DNA from: Gaiella occulta
GTDB lineage: Bacteria > Actinomycetota > Thermoleophilia > Gaiellales > Gaiellaceae
Assembly: GCF_003351045.1 (NCBI RefSeq)
Contig: NZ_QQZY01000005.1
Span: 1 to 64,000, forward strand
DNA: 64,000 nucleotides
Direction: 5' to 3'
Below are positions 13,411 to 47,153 of this stretch, in pieces. Under the pieces are notes generated by a model. It saw only the letters and a list, made by a program, of their open reading frames with translations, did not search any database and was not told where the DNA came from. Position 1 is the stretch's first letter. Each line of letters starts with the position of its first letter. Made by a program: the position numbers and the translations under genes.

Positions 13411-14387
13411 TCAGGGTCGCCCACGCCGGTGTCGGCGGCTGGGGCAAGAACGTCGTGCGCGTGGTCGGGGAGCTCGCCGAGCTCGCCTGGGTGTGCGACA
13501 CCGACGAGCGCCGCCGGGCGGAGTACGCCGAGCGGTACCCCTCGGCTCGCGTCACCGCGTCGTTCGACGAGATGCTCGACGACGACACCGTCGACGCCGT
13601 CGTGATCGCGACGCCCGTGCCGACGCACCACGCGCTCGCCAGGAAGGCCCTCGAAGCCGGCAAGCACGTGTTCGTGGAGAAGCCGCCGGCGATGCGCGGC
13701 GCCGAGATGGAGGAGCTCGTGACGCTCGCACGGGGGGCGGGGAAGGTGCTCATGCCGGGGCATCTGCTCCTCTACCACCCGGGCCTGCGCAAGGTGAAGG
13801 AGCTCGTGGACGCCGGCGAGCTGGGCGACGTCGCGTGCATCTACGGGAACCGGCAGAACCTCGGCGTCATCCGCTCGAACGAGAACGCGCTCTGGTCGCT
13901 CGGCGTCCACGATCTCTCGGTCATCCTCTGGCTGCTCGGCGAGGAGCCGAGCGAGGCCGTCGCCCACGGCATCGACCGTCTCCAGAAGGGCATCGAGGAC
14001 GTCGTCTTCTGCTTCCTGCGCTTCCCGTCCGGGAAGATCGCGCACATGCACCTGTCCTGGCTCGACCCGCACAAGATGCGGAAGATGACGGTCGTCGGGC
14101 TCGAGAAGATGGTCGTGTTCGACGACATGGAGCTCGAGCGCAAGGTGACCGTGTACGACAAGGCGCCGTGGGAGCCGGCCGAGACCTACGGCGAGTGGCG
14201 CACCCGCACCGGCGACATCTTCAGCCCCAAGATCCCGAACGACGAGCCGCTGCGACTCGAGATGCAGCACTTCCTCCGGCTCGTCGTCGAGGGGCCCGGC
14301 GGCCACCGCGAGGCGCTCGACGGGCTCGCGGTCGTCCGCGCGCTCGACCGCTTGACGACCTCGCTCCGCACCGGAGCGCCGGCGTGA
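13407..14387 (+). CDS. wbpB: Gfo/Idh/MocA oxidoreductase (WbpB/WlbA-like)
   Basis: A 326-residue protein on a GTGA overlap with the dehydrogenase. Rossmann loop HAGVGGWGKN at the N-terminus, VVIATPVPTHHALARKALEAGKHVFVEKP-type core (EKPPAMRG) and the GHLLLYHPGL segment typical of UDP-GlcNAcA 3-oxidoreductases. It would oxidise C3 of UDP-GlcNAcA to the 3-keto sugar before transamination. The genomic position between a WbpA-like and a WbpD-like gene supports this specific role over other Gfo/Idh enzymes. Confidence 0.82.
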   Translation: MIRVAHAGVGGWGKNVVRVVGELAELAWVCDTDERRRAEYAERYPSARVTASFDEMLDDDTVDAVVIATPVPTHHALARKALEAGKHVFVEKPPAMRGAEMEELVTLARGAGKVLMPGHLLLYHPGLRKVKELVDAGELGDVACIYGNRQNLGVIRSNENALWSLGVHDLSVILWLLGEEPSEAVAHGIDRLQKGIEDVVFCFLRFPSGKIAHMHLSWLDPHKMRKMTVVGLEKMVVFDDMELERKVTVYDKAPWEPAETYGEWRTRTGDIFSPKIPNDEPLRLEMQHFLRLVVEGPGGHREALDGLAVVRALDRLTTSLRTGAPA

Positions 14388-15034
14388 GCGTCGAGGTGCA
14401 CCCGAGCGCGATCGTCCATCCCGGCACCGTGCTCGGCGAAGGCGTGAAGGTGCTCGAGTACGCGGTCGTGGGCAAGCAGCCGTCGCTGTCGCCGCGGTCG
14501 ACCGCGAGCCGCGAGCCGCTGCCGCCGACGGTCATCGGCGAGGGCACGATCGTCTCCACCGCTGCGATCGTGTTCGCCGGGTCGACGATCGGCGCCCGCG
14601 TCATCCTCGGCGACCAGTCCTGCGTGCGCGAGCGCGTCACGATCGGCGACGACGTCGTGCTCGGACGCGGCTCCCTGATCGAGAACGACAGCACCGTGGG
14701 GGCGCTCGCGAAGATCCAGGCGGACGCGTACATCACCGCCTACTCGACGCTCGAGGAGAGCGTCTTCATCGCCCCGTGCGTCGTGACGACGAACGACAAC
14801 TTCATGGGCCGCACCGAGAAGCGCTTCGGGAACGTCAAGGGGCCGACGATCCGGCGCGGTGCGCGGATCGGCGGGGGGGCGATCCTGTGCCCGGGGATCG
14901 AGGTCGGCGAGGAGGCGTTCGTCGGCGCCGGCGCCGTCGTCACGAAGGACGTGCCGCCGCGGGTCGTCGTCGTCGGGAGCCCCGCGCGCGTGCTGCGCGA
15001 GGTTCCCGACGACGAGCTGCTCGAGAACGCGTAG
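14384..15034 (+). CDS. wbpD: Left-handed beta-helix N-acyltransferase (WbpD-like)
   Basis: A 216-residue protein, GTGA overlap with the oxidoreductase. Hexapeptide repeats ([LIV]-G-x4) run throughout: VHPSAIVHPGTVLGEG, then VIGEGTIVSTAAIVFAG, GARIGGGAILCPGIEVGEEA and GSPARVL at the end. This is the trimeric acetyltransferase fold that in this pathway acetylates the 3-amino group of UDP-2-acetamido-3-amino-uronic acid. Its presence implies an aminotransferase (WbpE) somewhere, but none is in the operon. Downstream genes are convergent, 18 bases away. Confidence 0.85.
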   Translation: MSVEVHPSAIVHPGTVLGEGVKVLEYAVVGKQPSLSPRSTASREPLPPTVIGEGTIVSTAAIVFAGSTIGARVILGDQSCVRERVTIGDDVVLGRGSLIENDSTVGALAKIQADAYITAYSTLEESVFIAPCVVTTNDNFMGRTEKRFGNVKGPTIRRGARIGGGAILCPGIEVGEEAFVGAGAVVTKDVPPRVVVVGSPARVLREVPDDELLENA

Positions 15035-15052
15035 GGGAAGCCGAAGGCGCCG

Positions 15053-16693
15053 CTACCACGCCTTGACGACGCTGAGACGGTAGGCGCCGCCACCCGGCCG
15101 CTCCAGGCGCAGTTGCAGGGAGTACCAGCCGGCATGCGGCGCCCGGTAGGAGACGCGCACGCGCTGCCCGGCCGCCGAGCGGCGCACACGGCCGGTCGGC
15201 CGGCCGGCGGCGGCGAGGCTCTCGCTGCCCGGCCTCCACAGCGAGAGAGACGCGGCGGCCTGCGGCGTCGCCCCGCCGTAGGACGCGTACAGCGCCTGCC
15301 CGCGCCGCAGGTAGACGCGGTAGACGTCGTCGCGGTCGTCCCAGTAGTCGAGGGTCGCGTCCACACGGCGCTTCACGCCGTAGAGCGGGTAGGCGCTCGC
15401 GCCGGCGCCGTCGTTGGGCTCGAACGCGTCCCGCGCCGGTCGCGGCGCGGCGAGAGCGGCGGCGGCGTCGAGCCGCCCCCAGCCGGTGAGGGGGTCCCTG
15501 CCGGGCGCGCACTTCGCGCACCCGTTCGCCGCGGTCGCGTCGACGGCGGAGCGCTCGATCAGCGCCGCCGCCTGACCGGGGGCAAGCGACGGGTCGGCGG
15601 CGATCAGCTGGGCCGCGGCGGCCGTCACCTGCGGGGCGGCGAAGCTCGTGCCCTCGGCATTCCGGTACTCGTCGGGACCGCACGAGGAGTAGCCCTGCTC
15701 GCTGCACTCGGGTCGCTGCGCGGTGATCGCCAGCGGGAGCGTCGAGAGGATCTCCTCGCCCGGCGCCGCGACGTCGTTGAACACCGGGTCGCGGTTCGAG
15801 AACAGCGGCGCGTCGCCGCTGCGGGCGAGTGCGCTGACGCCGAGCACGTGCGGCAGCGCGGCCGGCCAGCTCGCATACGGCCACGGCTGGGAGGGAGCCT
15901 GGTCGGAGTTCCCCACCGCGGCCACGACGAGGACGCCCTTCGACACGGCGTAGGCGACCGCGTCCGCCTCGAGCCGCGAATAGGTGTCCCGCGAGGCGTC
16001 GGCCGGGTCGCGCAGGCCGCCGAGGCTCATGTTGATCACCCGCGCTCCGCGCGCGACGGCCCAGCGGATCGCCTTCGCCTCCGCCTCGACCGAGATCGAG
16101 CGCTGCGGGCCGACGACCTTGGCGACGAGGAGCTGCGCGGACGGCGCCAGCCCCGCGATCCCGACGCCGTCGTCGGCTGCGGCGGCGATGAGGCCGGCGA
16201 CGAAGGTGCCGTGGCCCTGCGTGTCGGACGTGTCCGACGGGTCGCCGCCGACGAAGCTCCGCGCCGCGGCGATGCGGCCCGCGAGCTGTGGGTGCGTCGC
16301 GTCGACGCCGGAGTCGATCACGGCGACACGCACGGCGGCGAGCGGCGGCAGCTCGGTCCAGGCGTCGTAGGAGCGGTTCTGCGCCAGGTACCACTGCCGC
16401 GGCAGGAACGGGTCGTTGGGCGTGAACGCGGGCCGTCGCACGCGCAGCGGCTCCACGTAGCGGACGCCGCGCACGCCTGCCAGGGCGGCGGCGTCCGCGG
16501 TGTCGACGACGAGCGCGGGAAGCGGCGCGAGGCTCTCGACCGGCGTCGCGCCGCGCGCCCGCAGTTCGCGCGCGACGCCTGCGGAAGCGGCATCCGGCTC
16601 GAGACCGACCACGTAGCGTGCCGCGGCGGCGCCGGCCGGCGCGACGAGAGCGAGCACGATCGCGGCGGCCGCGGCCGCCGCGCGCCCCGTCAT
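15053..16693 (-). CDS. Secreted subtilisin-family serine protease (S8)
   Basis: A 546-residue protein; ATG 16693 overlaps the upstream stop (ATGA). Signal peptide at residues 1-24 (AAAAAAAIVLALVAPAGAAA), then a short I9-like propeptide region (RYVVGLEPDAASAGV to ALAGVRGVRYVEP). The catalytic triad is complete: VAVIDSGVDATHPQL (Asp), GHGTFVAGLIAA (His), GTSFAAPQVTAA (Ser). A C-terminal ~110-residue beta domain with FEPNDG at its head resembles the pre-peptidase (PPC) domains that follow subtilases. Secreted or cell-surface endopeptidase. It is coupled to a SpoIID/LytB protein. Confidence 0.92.
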   Translation of the reverse strand: MTGRAAAAAAAIVLALVAPAGAAAARYVVGLEPDAASAGVARELRARGATPVESLAPLPALVVDTADAAALAGVRGVRYVEPLRVRRPAFTPNDPFLPRQWYLAQNRSYDAWTELPPLAAVRVAVIDSGVDATHPQLAGRIAAARSFVGGDPSDTSDTQGHGTFVAGLIAAAADDGVGIAGLAPSAQLLVAKVVGPQRSISVEAEAKAIRWAVARGARVINMSLGGLRDPADASRDTYSRLEADAVAYAVSKGVLVVAAVGNSDQAPSQPWPYASWPAALPHVLGVSALARSGDAPLFSNRDPVFNDVAAPGEEILSTLPLAITAQRPECSEQGYSSCGPDEYRNAEGTSFAAPQVTAAAAQLIAADPSLAPGQAAALIERSAVDATAANGCAKCAPGRDPLTGWGRLDAAAALAAPRPARDAFEPNDGAGASAYPLYGVKRRVDATLDYWDDRDDVYRVYLRRGQALYASYGGATPQAAASLSLWRPGSESLAAAGRPTGRVRRSAAGQRVRVSYRAPHAGWYSLQLRLERPGGGAYRLSVVKAW

Positions 16694-32875: not shown

Positions 32876-33670
32876 TCAGTGGGCCTCCTTGCGCAGCTGG
32901 CGCGCGCGCAGGTCGTCGCGCTCCCAGCGGAAGCCGAGGTCGACGATCGTGCCGGCCGGATGTGGCCTCGTCGCTTCGGCCAGGCAGGCACGGAGCACAC
33001 CGCGGTGGGTGGCCTCGTCGCCGACTGCGCCCAGCGTGAGCCCGAAGGGATGCTCGACCAGGCAGGCGAGCGAGGGCCGGACGAGCTCGGTGATCTCTCG
33101 CACCTGGCTGAGGGAGACGGTGGCGAGGCCGTGCCGGTCGAAGACGCGCTGGAGCAGTCCCACGGACTGCTGGCAGACCGGTCAGGAGGGGACGAGCAGG
33201 ACGAGATCGACGGCGTCCGCGAGCAGCTTCGCCGCGACCTCCGGGCCGGTCTGCTCGAGCAACGGCTCCGTCTCGGGGATGTAGCCCATGAACGAGAAGG
33301 CGCGCGGCGCGACCTCCCCGATCTCGCCCTCCGCGGCGAGCCGGCGCAGCAGCGAGAGCGGGAAGACGACATCCGCGTCCTCGCGTGGACGGCGCGTGTC
33401 GTAGCCGGCGTGCGTGAAGCGAAGCTCGTGCGCGTCCGAGGGCAGCTCGCGGTAGCTGCTGTCGCCGCTCTTGCCGAGGTCGAACGCCGGCTGCTCGGGC
33501 AGGTGAGCGCCCGCGGTGGCGACGAGCGCGACGCGCGAGCGCGAGAGCGGGCGCTCCAGCGGGCGGCGCGGCGAGGGCTCCTCGAACGTCGCCCACTCGA
33601 ACGGCTCGTAGGCGCGCCCACGCACGTACTCGTACTCGACCTGCGCGAAGCCCCGGTACCGTGCCACCAC
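32876..33670 (-). CDS. Selenoprotein of the GrdB-like (glycine/betaine/sarcosine/proline reductase) superfamily (Sec163)
   Basis: Read through TGA at 33184-33182 this is a 264-residue protein from GTG 33670. The N-terminal half has SRVALVATAGAHLPEQPAFD, SSYRELPSDAHELRFTHAGY, DADVVFPLSLLRRLAAEGEI and FSFMGYIPETEPLLE. This is the typical order of GrdB-related proteins, with the His-x-Gly segment. Then VDLVLLVPS-U-PVCQQSVGLLQRV follows, where relatives have CPVC. The frame continues intact for 101 codons (LATVSLSQVREITELVRPSL, EHPFGLTLGA). The U-P-V-C motif is a likely redox centre. This branch has unknown substrate and is not a classical glycine reductase. A SECIS-type hairpin follows the UGA. 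Confidence 0.8.
33153..33184 (-). promoter_or_regulatory. Bacterial SECIS-like element (UGA and hairpin)
   Basis: On the minus strand, UGA (33184-33182), ten bases, then a perfect 8-bp stem AGCAGTCC / GGACTGCT (33171-33164 with 33160-33153) closing a GTG loop that starts 18 bases after the UGA. First loop base is G. Confidence 0.7.
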
Positions 33671-43428: not shown

Positions 43429-44853
43429 TCATGCGCTCGCGGGATGGGAGGCTCCCGATACCCCGGTAGCGGCTCGCCGCTCGTCCTCGAGCTTCTCGAG
43501 CAGGCGGAGCCAGACCTCGCTCCGCGTCGGGAACGAGGGGACGGCGTGCCACAGCTGCTCGGTCGGCACCTCGCCGGCGATCGCGATCGTCGCCGCGTGG
43601 AGCCACTCCGCGACCTCCGTCCCCGTGAACGTCGCCCCGACGATGACGTCGCGATCCTCGTCGACGACGATGCGCGAGATCCCCGGCGTGTTGCGGCCGT
43701 GGAAGCTCGCCCCGGCGGTGGCCGCCGTCTGCTGGTCGACGGTGCGGATCCGCAGCCCGCTCGCGAGGGCGCTCTCCGCCGTGTGCCCGACGGCGGCGAC
43801 CTGAGGGTCGCTGAAGACCACGCGCGGCACGAGCGGCCCGTCGGCGAGCCGGTGCGCGCGCGCATCGCGCCCGTGGATCTGCTCGGCCGCGATCCGCGCC
43901 TGGTACTTGCCGATGTGGGTGAGCAGCGCTCGCCCGTTGACGTCTCCGATCGCGTACAGCCAGTCGTGGCCGGGCACGCGCATGTCGTCGCCGACGGTGA
44001 CGAACGAGCCGGGCTCGAGGCCCACGGTCTCGAGCCCGAGGCTCCCTGTCTGCGGCCTCCTCCCCGCCGCGACGAGCAGCTCCTCGGCGGCGAGCTCCGT
44101 CCCGTCCGCCAACGTGATCCAGACCCGGCTGTGCTCCCGGTGCGCCATCACCGCCTGCACACCGAGCCGCACGTCGACACCGCGGTCGCGGAGAGCCGTC
44201 TCGACGAGCTCGCTCGCGAACGGCTCCTCGCGGGCGAGCAGCCGCGGCAGCGTCTCGAGAAGCGTCACACGGGCGCCGAGCGACGTCCATGCCTGTGCGA
44301 GCTCGACGCCGACCGCGCCGCCTCCGAGCACGATCAGGCTCGCCGGCACACGAGCCGCCGTTGTTCCCTCGCGGTTCGTCCACGGCGCGACCTCGTTCAG
44401 CCCCGGGATCGGCGGGATCGCTGCGGTCGTCCCGGTCGCGAGCACGACCGCGCGGCGCGCGACGAGGACGTCCCCGTTGACGCGGACGCGCCGCGGCCCG
44501 TCGAGGGCCGCCGTGCCGCGGACGAGGTCGACGGCGCGCGCCTCGAGCCAGGGCAGCTGTGCCGTGTCGTCGAGGTCGTGGATGACCTCGTCCCGCCGTC
44601 GCAGCGCGGCCTCGGCATCGAGCTCGCCCTGCACGGCCTCGCGCGCGCCCGGTACACGGCGAGCTTCGGCGAGGAGCTCCGACGGTCGCAGCAGCGCCTT
44701 CGAGGGCATACAGCCCCAGTAGGAGCACTCGCCGCCGACGAGCTCGTGCTCGACGAGCACGACCTCGAGCCCTGCCTGCCCGAGCCGCCCGGCGCAGACT
44801 TCGCCGGCGGGGCCGGCTCCGATCACGACGACGTCGACTTCACGCTCGCTCAT
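43429..44853 (-). CDS. Pyridine nucleotide-disulfide oxidoreductase (MerA/Lpd-like, no HMA domain)
   Basis: A 474-residue flavoprotein. FAD loop VVVIGAGPAGEVCAGRLG, redox-active disulfide GGECSYWGCMPSK, NAD(P) loop LIVLGGGAVGVELAQAW, second FAD motif WLYAIGDVNG and the dimer-interface domain RVVFSDPQVAAVGHT to VPTEQLWHAVPSFPTRSE. The C-terminal His-x4-Glu of lipoamide dehydrogenases is altered (HAVPSFPTRSE keeps H and P but not E at the usual place), and there is no C-terminal Cys pair, so it is neither a typical Lpd nor MerA. Substrate unknown. Confidence 0.85.
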   Translation of the reverse strand: MSEREVDVVVIGAGPAGEVCAGRLGQAGLEVVLVEHELVGGECSYWGCMPSKALLRPSELLAEARRVPGAREAVQGELDAEAALRRRDEVIHDLDDTAQLPWLEARAVDLVRGTAALDGPRRVRVNGDVLVARRAVVLATGTTAAIPPIPGLNEVAPWTNREGTTAARVPASLIVLGGGAVGVELAQAWTSLGARVTLLETLPRLLAREEPFASELVETALRDRGVDVRLGVQAVMAHREHSRVWITLADGTELAAEELLVAAGRRPQTGSLGLETVGLEPGSFVTVGDDMRVPGHDWLYAIGDVNGRALLTHIGKYQARIAAEQIHGRDARAHRLADGPLVPRVVFSDPQVAAVGHTAESALASGLRIRTVDQQTAATAGASFHGRNTPGISRIVVDEDRDVIVGATFTGTEVAEWLHAATIAIAGEVPTEQLWHAVPSFPTRSEVWLRLLEKLEDERRAATGVSGASHPASA

Positions 44854-45494: not shown

Positions 45495-47153
45495 ATGAGC
45501 CGTCAGCGGATCGAGATCACGGGGATGACATGCGAGCACTGCGCGGTGAAGATCGAGGCGGTGCTCGAGGATGCCGGGGCGACGGGCGTGTTCGTCGACT
45601 ACCGGCGCGGCTTCGCGGAGCTCGATCCGGAGGGGGTCGACCTCGAGCAGGCGCGCGCGTTCCTGCGCGGCACGGGATACGAGCTCGGCGATCCGCTTCC
45701 GATCGAAGGCGACGGCACGCCCGAGCAGCTCGACGACGTGACGGGCGCGGACGCCGGGTACGACTACGACCTGGCGATCGTCGGCGCGGGCGCCGCCGCG
45801 TTCGCGGGCGCGATCCAGGCGTTCGAGCGCGGCGCCCGCGTGGTGATGGTCGAGCACGGCACGGTCGGCGGCACGTGCGTCAACGTCGGCTGCGTGCCCT
45901 CGAAGACGATGCTGCGCGCGGGCGAGCTCTACGGCCTCGCCGGCCACAACCCCCACGCGGGCGTGCCGACCTCGACGGCGCCGGTCGATCTCGGCGCGCT
46001 CGTGGCGCAGAAGGACGCCCTCGTGGAGCGGATGCGGAAGGAGAAGTACTGCGACCTGATCGAGGACTACGGCTGGGACCTCGTCAAGGGTCACGCCGAG
46101 TTCGGCGACGCCGACAGCCTGCTCGTCGACGGCGAGCCGATCCGGGCGCGCCGCTACCTCGTCGCGACGGGTGCGCGTCCGGCGATCCCGCCGATCGAGG
46201 GGCTCGAGGAGGCAGGCTACGTCACCTCCACGAGCGGGCTCGAGCTGAGGGAGCTGCCGAAGCGGCTGCTCGTGATCGGGGGCAACTACATCGGGCTGGA
46301 GATGGGCCAGCTCTATGCGCACCTCGGCTCCGAGGTGGTGCTGTTCGAGATGCTCGAGCGGATCTCGCCGCTCGAGGAGCCGGAGGTCGCGGACGCCCTG
46401 GCGGAGGTTCTCGCGTCGGACGGCGTGCAGGTCGTGACGGGCGCACGCGTCGTCCGCGCCGCTCGCGACGGCGGCGAGAAGACGCTGACGGTGATCGTCG
46501 ACGGTGACGAGCGGGTGTTCCGCGGCGACGAGATCCTGGTTGCCGCCGGCCGGCGCCCGAACACCGACAGCCTCGGTCTCGAGCGCGCCGGGATCGAGCT
46601 GGCCGGGCGCGGCGGGATCCGCGTCGACGCCACGCAGCGCACGACGAACCCGCGCGTGTACGCCGCCGGCGACTGCACCGACTCGCCGCAGTTCGTCTAC
46701 GTCGCGGCCGCGCAGGGGGCGACCGCCGTGCGCAACGCGCTCACGGACGGCGACGATCGGCTCGACTACACCGCGCTGCCGCGGATCACGTTCACGCACC
46801 CGCAGGTCGCTGCCGTCGGGCTGAGCGAGGCGCAGGCCGTGGAGCAGGGTCTCGACGTCGACGTGCGAACGCTGCCGCTCGCGTCGGTTCCCCGCGCGCT
46901 CGTCAATCGCGACAGCCGCGGCCTCGTCAAGATCGTGGCCGAGCGCGAGAGCGGCCGCATCCTCGGCGCGACCGCGGTGGCCGAGAACGCCGGCGACATC
47001 ATCCTCGCCGCCGTCTACGCGGTGCGGTTCAGGCTCACGGTCGCGGACGTCGCCTCCACTTGGGCGCCGTACCTGACGATGAGCGAGGGCCTCAAGCTCG
47101 CCGCCCAGATATTCACCCGCGACGTCGCGAAGCTCTCCTGTTGCGCGGCCTGA
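45495..47153 (+). CDS. merA: Mercuric reductase with N-terminal heavy-metal-associated domain
   Basis: A 552-residue enzyme. Residues 1-68 are an HMA domain with the ligand motif GMTCEHC. The flavin reductase core follows: YDYDLAIVGAGAAAFAGAIQ, active-site GGTCVNVGCVPSK, NADPH site LLVIGGNYIGLEMGQL, FAD site VYAAGDCTDS and the MerA dimer region ITFTHPQVAAVGLSE. The C-terminal KLSCCAA keeps the vicinal Cys pair that delivers Hg(II) to the neighbouring subunit's active site. It reduces Hg(II) to Hg(0) with NADPH in the cytoplasm. A dyad operator candidate precedes it and a MerT-like gene follows. Confidence 0.95.
   Translation: MSRQRIEITGMTCEHCAVKIEAVLEDAGATGVFVDYRRGFAELDPEGVDLEQARAFLRGTGYELGDPLPIEGDGTPEQLDDVTGADAGYDYDLAIVGAGAAAFAGAIQAFERGARVVMVEHGTVGGTCVNVGCVPSKTMLRAGELYGLAGHNPHAGVPTSTAPVDLGALVAQKDALVERMRKEKYCDLIEDYGWDLVKGHAEFGDADSLLVDGEPIRARRYLVATGARPAIPPIEGLEEAGYVTSTSGLELRELPKRLLVIGGNYIGLEMGQLYAHLGSEVVLFEMLERISPLEEPEVADALAEVLASDGVQVVTGARVVRAARDGGEKTLTVIVDGDERVFRGDEILVAAGRRPNTDSLGLERAGIELAGRGGIRVDATQRTTNPRVYAAGDCTDSPQFVYVAAAQGATAVRNALTDGDDRLDYTALPRITFTHPQVAAVGLSEAQAVEQGLDVDVRTLPLASVPRALVNRDSRGLVKIVAERESGRILGATAVAENAGDIILAAVYAVRFRLTVADVASTWAPYLTMSEGLKLAAQIFTRDVAKLSCCAA

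What the first reader, a model, noticed from the sequence alone, without database searches (positions are those of the whole stretch)
32876..33670. GrdB-superfamily selenoprotein in an aerobic-looking actinobacterium (S-U-P-V-C)
TGA at 33184-33182 falls on the conserved Cys of the CPVC motif. The downstream 101 codons are family-like, and a perfect 8-bp hairpin starts 10 bases after the UGA. Known Sec-containing GrdB proteins belong to anaerobic glycine or betaine reductases; this branch lacks those neighbours, so the reaction is unknown.
Basis: partly seen in the sequence, partly recalled or inferred. Interest (0 to 1): 0.78.

Follow-up and report, generated by a model that had tools for sequence, protein, structure and literature searches.

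The report
Stand-alone PrdB-like selenoprotein in an actinobacterium
A soil-type actinobacterium that looks aerobic carries a real selenium-containing enzyme related to the substrate-attacking subunit of the anaerobic D-proline and glycine reductases, but without their obligatory partner, so it probably does related selenium chemistry on a different, still unknown substrate.

Summary
At 33670-32876(-) an open frame is interrupted only by UGA at 33184-33182, at the conserved first Cys of CPVC, followed by 101 family-like codons. The Sec reading is very strong. The genome has selA, selB, selD and tRNA-Sec, and a second selenoprotein gene (AhpD-like, CHYU). The UGA is conserved in all seven members of the gene's clade, which come from separate assemblies. 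The hairpin 10 nt after UGA keeps its six core pairs in 16 of 16 Sec homologues, with compensatory changes; Cys homologues lack it.

The family assignment needs correcting. The protein matches PrdB (TIGR04483, 111 bits, cutoff 300) far better than GrdB, but belongs to neither. It is a partner-less PrdB-like clade. In 396 genomes of the phylum, 62 carry PrdB-like genes without any pyruvoyl-subunit gene (PF09338); all 15 genomes with PF09338 have it beside a GrdB. Sec "PrdB" with UxxC has been reported in surface seawater since 2005, so Sec PrdB-like proteins in oxic settings are not new. The stand-alone clade and its function are the open part.

Most likely it is a selenol reductase acting on an electrophilic or oxidised small molecule. 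In two lineages the gene sits beside an FAD disulfide reductase, once also beside a Sec-DsbA. The substrate is unknown.

The parts
32876..33670 (-). PrdB-like selenoprotein gene, GTG start, UGA read as Sec at codon 163, TGA stop; 264 aa
   Evidence: PF07355 40.1 bits; TIGR04483 111 bits over residues 36-249, spanning the UGA
33182..33184 (-). in-frame UGA = Sec163 of the UxxC (U-P-V-C) motif
   Evidence: same site is TGA in all 7 rows of the clade and most other subfamilies; aligned to the first Cys of CPVC in Bradyrhizobium and other Cys homologues
33173..33175 (-). Cys166, second residue of UxxC, proposed resolving thiol
   Evidence: invariant in alignments A2 and A3
33153..33171 (-). SECIS hairpin: 6 core pairs (columns 15-20 with 26-31) plus flanking pairs, apical loop with conserved GU
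33410..33412 (-). His87 of the H-x-x-Y-D motif, candidate catalytic residue
   Evidence: invariant in A2, nearly invariant in A3
33377..33379 (-). Asp98 of the D-x-x-x-x-x-P motif, candidate catalytic residue
   Evidence: invariant in A2 and A3

Best explanation
A stand-alone PrdB-like selenoenzyme. Shown: the UGA is a conserved Sec codon in a genome with full Sec machinery, a conserved SECIS follows it, the catalytic UxxC plus His/Asp positions of the GrdB/PrdB superfamily are kept, and the pyruvoyl subunit that works with GrdB/PrdB is absent. Inferred: Sec163, predicted at the N-terminus of a helix, is a low-pKa selenolate that attacks an electrophilic or oxidised small molecule; Cys166 resolves the Se-bound intermediate as a selenenylsulfide; NAD(P)H-fed thiol/disulfide carriers re-reduce it. 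Because no pyruvoyl group is available to activate an amine as an imine, the substrate should not be D-proline or glycine. A thiol-type or already electrophilic (possibly N-heterocyclic) metabolite is more likely.
For: Sec. Shared core with PrdB. No PF09338 in the own genome; in a 396-genome phylum sample 62 genomes have PrdB-like and no PF09338, while the 15 with PF09338 carry it beside a GrdB hit; PF09338 does detect PrdA. The AlphaFold model (pLDDT 91, pTM 0.91) puts residue 163 between strand 156-160 and helix 164-179. Redox partners in relatives: L148 has PrdB-like(Sec), then a DsbA-like gene with its own in-frame TGA (DYVUPFCYIG), then a PRK06370-type FAD disulfide reductase. A 42-44% identical FAD reductase lies on the same strand 0.85-1.4 kb from PrdB-like genes in five loci of another family.
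Against: The redox neighbours occur in only 6 of 67 loci and not at the window, whose same-strand upstream neighbours are a HAD phosphatase and glucose-6-phosphate dehydrogenase. No neighbour is conserved within the clade. Fold search gave no relative of known function. No biochemical data.
Confidence: 0.5

Rival explanations
1. It is a catabolic enzyme that reductively opens a C-N (or C-S) bond of an N-heterocycle or amide in a hydantoin/oxoprolinase-like or purine-like pathway, with the substrate activated by another enzyme instead of a pyruvoyl group.
For: In G052 both copies sit beside hydantoinase/oxoprolinase genes: L030 PrdB-like overlaps HyuA, then HyuB; L160 has isochorismatase, LLM, fused HyuAB, then PrdB-like, in a different order. 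In L032 the gene is near amidase and xanthine-dehydrogenase-type genes, which also occur near the L043 and L047 genes. PrdB itself cleaves a cyclic C-N bond (PMC13188914).
Against: Only a few loci; HyuA found in 2 of 67 loci, both from one genome; the window has no such neighbours.
Confidence: 0.25
2. It is a genuine D-proline (or glycine-type) reductase subunit whose pyruvoyl partner is too diverged or missing from the assembly.
For: Best curated match is PrdB TIGR04483; assembly about 98% complete, not 100%.
Against: 111 bits against a 300-bit cutoff; no PF09338 in the own genome or in 62 PrdB-like-bearing genomes; lies outside the PrdB clade; three COX1-family oxidase genes.
Confidence: 0.07
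3. The UGA is a true stop or a pseudogene/sequencing error and the downstream 101 codons are relic or a separate small gene.
For: The one-sequence folding z-score is weak.
Against: TGA conserved in separate assemblies and subfamilies, purifying selection downstream, covarying SECIS, complete sel genes.
Confidence: 0.02

Closest known systems
D-proline reductase PrdB (TIGR04483)
   Same: Length, UxxC active site, His/Asp motifs, alignment over residues 36-249
   Different: Below the curated cutoff; no PrdA or other prd genes; U-P-V-C rather than U-G-T-C; separate clade
Sec 'PrdB' family of Sargasso Sea/GOS metagenomes (PMC1088965, PMC2398784)
   Same: Sec PrdB-like, UxxC, common in oxic surface water
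   Different: Those sequences could not be aligned here; only their family label and motif were compared
Glycine/betaine/sarcosine reductase selenoprotein B (GrdB/GrdF/GrdH)
   Same: PF07355 superfamily; H-G-G-F-D-like and D-x-N motifs; Sec at the same site
   Different: GrdB is about 430 aa with U-G-T-x-T-R-C-G and sits beside the pyruvoyl subunit; this is 264 aa, matches only the C-terminal part and has no partner
Cys 'glycine/sarcosine/betaine reductase selenoprotein B family protein' of Bradyrhizobium and other Proteobacteria
   Same: Stand-alone PrdB-like, about 31-35% identical, CPVC at the Sec site
   Different: Cys instead of Sec, no SECIS hairpin, sister to another actinobacterial Sec clade (L044/L146)

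Membership tests
Bacterial selenoprotein (UGA-encoded Sec) | In-frame UGA aligned with a redox Cys and conserved in homologues | tested here: met
Bacterial selenoprotein (UGA-encoded Sec) | SECIS hairpin just 3' of the UGA, supported by covariation | tested here: met
Bacterial selenoprotein (UGA-encoded Sec) | selA, selB, selD and tRNA-Sec in the genome | tested here: met
Bacterial selenoprotein (UGA-encoded Sec) | Se actually incorporated in the protein | not testable with these tools
   needs 75Se labelling or mass spectrometry
GRDB superfamily (PF07355) | Score above Pfam gathering threshold | tested here: met
   40.1 bits against 22
D-proline reductase PrdB (TIGR04483 equivalog) | Score above the curated cutoff of 300 bits | tested here: not met
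   111 bits
D-proline reductase PrdB (TIGR04483 equivalog) | Pyruvoyl proprotein PrdA (PF09338) in the genome | tested here: not met
   no match in the own genome; the model detects PrdA and rings in 15 phylum genomes
D-proline reductase PrdB (TIGR04483 equivalog) | Branching inside the clade of bona fide PrdB | tested here: not met
   window clade 100/99 and PrdB rows 100/98 are separate starred groups
D-proline reductase PrdB (TIGR04483 equivalog) | D-proline reductase activity | not testable with these tools
   needs an assay
Glycine/betaine/sarcosine reductase selenoprotein B (GrdB) | About 430 aa with U-G-T-x-T-R-C-G motif, score above the GrdB model cutoffs | tested here: not met
   264 aa, U-P-V-C-Q-Q; 44-45 bits against cutoffs of 600-800
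Glycine/betaine/sarcosine reductase selenoprotein B (GrdB) | GrdE-type pyruvoyl subunit beside it | tested here: not met
   true GrdB hits in the phylum have PF09338 close by

The most novel reading that the evidence does not exclude
A pyruvoyl-independent branch of the GrdB/PrdB superfamily, often Sec-dependent and present in about one in six sampled genomes of this phylum, forms a new class of NAD(P)H/thiol-fed selenoreductases with an undescribed substrate in aerobic bacteria, and explains the abundant 'PrdB' selenoproteins of oxic seawater.
Probability: 0.4. Interest if true: 0.7.

Novelty: new variant of a known kind. Interest (0 to 1): 0.5.

Why it matters
PrdB-type selenoproteins have been counted among the commonest selenoproteins of oxic seawater for twenty years and labelled proline reductase. 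The data here show that in this phylum PrdB-like genes are uncoupled from the pyruvoyl subunit that Stickland reductases need. So the label probably hides a different reaction, and selenium is being spent on it in organisms that look aerobic. The FAD-reductase and Sec-DsbA neighbours give a concrete electron-donor hypothesis to test.

Tried and rejected
Ordinary stop/pseudogene: rejected. Bona fide GrdB or PrdB: rejected on cutoffs, partner and tree. Mobile or viral cargo: the viral scan found no relative. Conserved neighbour within the clade or the Proteobacterial Cys clade: none beyond local synteny. Fold relatives in the PDB: no Foldseek match with E<=0.001, and VIA-align best Z about 8 to LacI-type Rossmann-like folds, which is uninformative; no sequence relative in the PDB. 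Ergothioneine-type pathway, considered because of a urocanase-like gene near L148: one locus only, the gene scores as ordinary HutU above cutoff, and no paper linked the two. Sec-DsbA in the own genome: the only DsbA-family hit has no in-frame stop. Rfam gave nothing in the window. One search used wrong coordinates for three rows and was replaced. The first attempt to hand in this report failed only on formatting.

Full report
Observation. The minus-strand frame 33670-32876 encodes 264 residues if the single internal TGA at 33184-33182 is read as selenocysteine; the motif is LLVPS-U-PVCQQSVGLL and 101 codons follow before the stop. The longer overlapping ORFs in other frames look like shadows of a G+C-rich gene: only this frame has family matches, and a simple codon-usage gene call chose both of its halves.

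Is the UGA a Sec codon? The genome (3.03 Mb, 97.9% complete) has selA and selB adjacent, tRNA-Sec 2 kb on, and selD elsewhere. Between selB and tRNA-Sec lies a second selenoprotein gene, an AhpD/peroxidase-related protein with CHY-U-T. All seven rows of the gene's clade, from separate assemblies, have TGA at this site, and so do 22 of the 23 genomes with a match among 399 of the class. Downstream of the TGA the gene is under purifying selection. In a synonymous-recoding test the hairpin stands out in 10 of 15 Sec homologues (median p 0.022) and in 6% of 66 Cys homologues (median p 0.54). In a 16-sequence ungapped alignment, six pairs (columns 15-20 with 26-31) form in every sequence; four of them change on both sides; the covariation score is 0.54 against 0.17 in shuffles and at most 0.11 in slid registers. 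The invariant GU in the apical loop resembles the SelB-contacting loop of E. coli fdhF (from memory, not tested). Caveat: the sequences are related and protein-coding, so the p-values are not independent. Among 61 relatives, the five genomes with a PrdB-like gene also have selA.

What family? Pfam GRDB is met (40.1 bits, cutoff 22). Among curated models PrdB (TIGR04483) is far ahead (111 bits, residues 36-249, against 44-45 bits for GrdB models), but well below its 300-bit cutoff. A maximum-likelihood tree puts the window in a 7-row Sec-only clade (100/99), separate from bona fide PrdB (100/98) and GrdB (100/100); Cys forms are nearly all one Proteobacterial group whose sister is another actinobacterial Sec clade. 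Deep branching order is unresolved.

The missing partner. GrdB and PrdB work with a pyruvoyl subunit (GrdE/PrdA; from established knowledge). PF09338 detects PrdA but finds nothing in this genome. In 396 genomes of the phylum, 77 have a superfamily member. All 15 with PF09338 are in this set, and PF09338 lies on the same contig, usually within about 1.5 kb, as a weakly scoring, GrdB-type hit. The other 62 genomes have PrdB-like genes and no PF09338; 58 of them carry at least one copy with an in-frame TGA. PrdB-like genes are thus generally uncoupled from the pyruvoyl chemistry here.

Mechanism. Invariant or nearly invariant across PrdB and PrdB-like are His87, Asp98, Sec/Cys163, Cys166, Gly210 and Gly214. 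The AlphaFold model (29 sequences, pLDDT 91.3, pTM 0.91) puts Sec163 just before the N-terminus of helix 164-179 after strand 156-160, the usual site of a reactive thiol or selenol. PDB fold searches gave nothing decisive. Neighbours: at the window, a HAD phosphatase and glucose-6-phosphate dehydrogenase on the same strand, not conserved. In L148 the order is PrdB-like(Sec), a DsbA-like gene with its own in-frame TGA (DYVUPFCYIG), and a PRK06370-type FAD disulfide reductase. A 42-44% identical reductase lies 0.85-1.4 kb away on the same strand in five loci of another family. In G052 both copies sit beside hydantoinase/oxoprolinase genes in different orders. I therefore favour a thiol-fed selenol reductase of an electrophilic or oxidised small molecule (0.5) over an N-heterocycle C-N cleaving enzyme (0.25); the two are not exclusive. 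The substrate is inference only.

Comparison with the literature. Sec PrdB with UxxC was third among known selenoprotein families in Sargasso Sea data (42 genes) and had 235 members in GOS samples (PMC1088965, PMC2398784); proline reductase was the fifth most numerous Sec family by number of organisms in 2016 (PMC5029168), where 40% of Sec users favoured aerobic conditions. What remains is a partner-less clade with no curated family of its own and no known substrate.

Verdict. Real, not an artefact; a new variant of a known selenoprotein kind; interest 0.5.

Noticed in passing
L029:10231-10806 (-) (own genome, C1 about 310.2-310.8 kb): Second selenoprotein gene: AhpD/peroxidase-related protein with CHY-U-T, between selB and tRNA-Sec.
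   Followed up: partly
L210:6113-6865 and L211:6343-7113 (genomes G503, G473): PrdB-like genes with two in-frame TGAs, A-P-A-U-P-I-U-H-Q: the resolving Cys is also TGA (UxxU).
   Followed up: no
L148:8670-9308: DsbA-like gene with in-frame TGA (DYVUPFCYIG) directly after the Sec PrdB-like gene, followed by an FAD disulfide reductase.
   Followed up: partly
L160 (G052 contig C88, about 26.9-27.6 kb): A second PrdB-like copy in this genome is spread over three frames: frameshifted or an assembly error.
   Followed up: partly
window 45495-47153 (+) and 43429-44853 (-): Mercuric reductase MerA (TIGR02053, 577 bits) with an N-terminal extension that looks like a heavy-metal-binding domain, and a dihydrolipoyl-dehydrogenase-like flavoprotein, about 10-14 kb from the finding.
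   Followed up: no
L033, L034, L035, L158, L159 (same family or class): GrdB-type genes with S/T-G/A-T-U-G-T-G-T-R-C motif also occur in relatives; G008 and G019, which carry two of them, showed no selA match, perhaps because the assemblies are incomplete.
   Followed up: no
L148:772-4657 and 13454-15406: Corrinoid-protein and methyltransferase-like genes (by eye) and a urocanase-family gene that also scores on thiourocanate hydratase models, around the Sec PrdB-like gene.
   Followed up: partly
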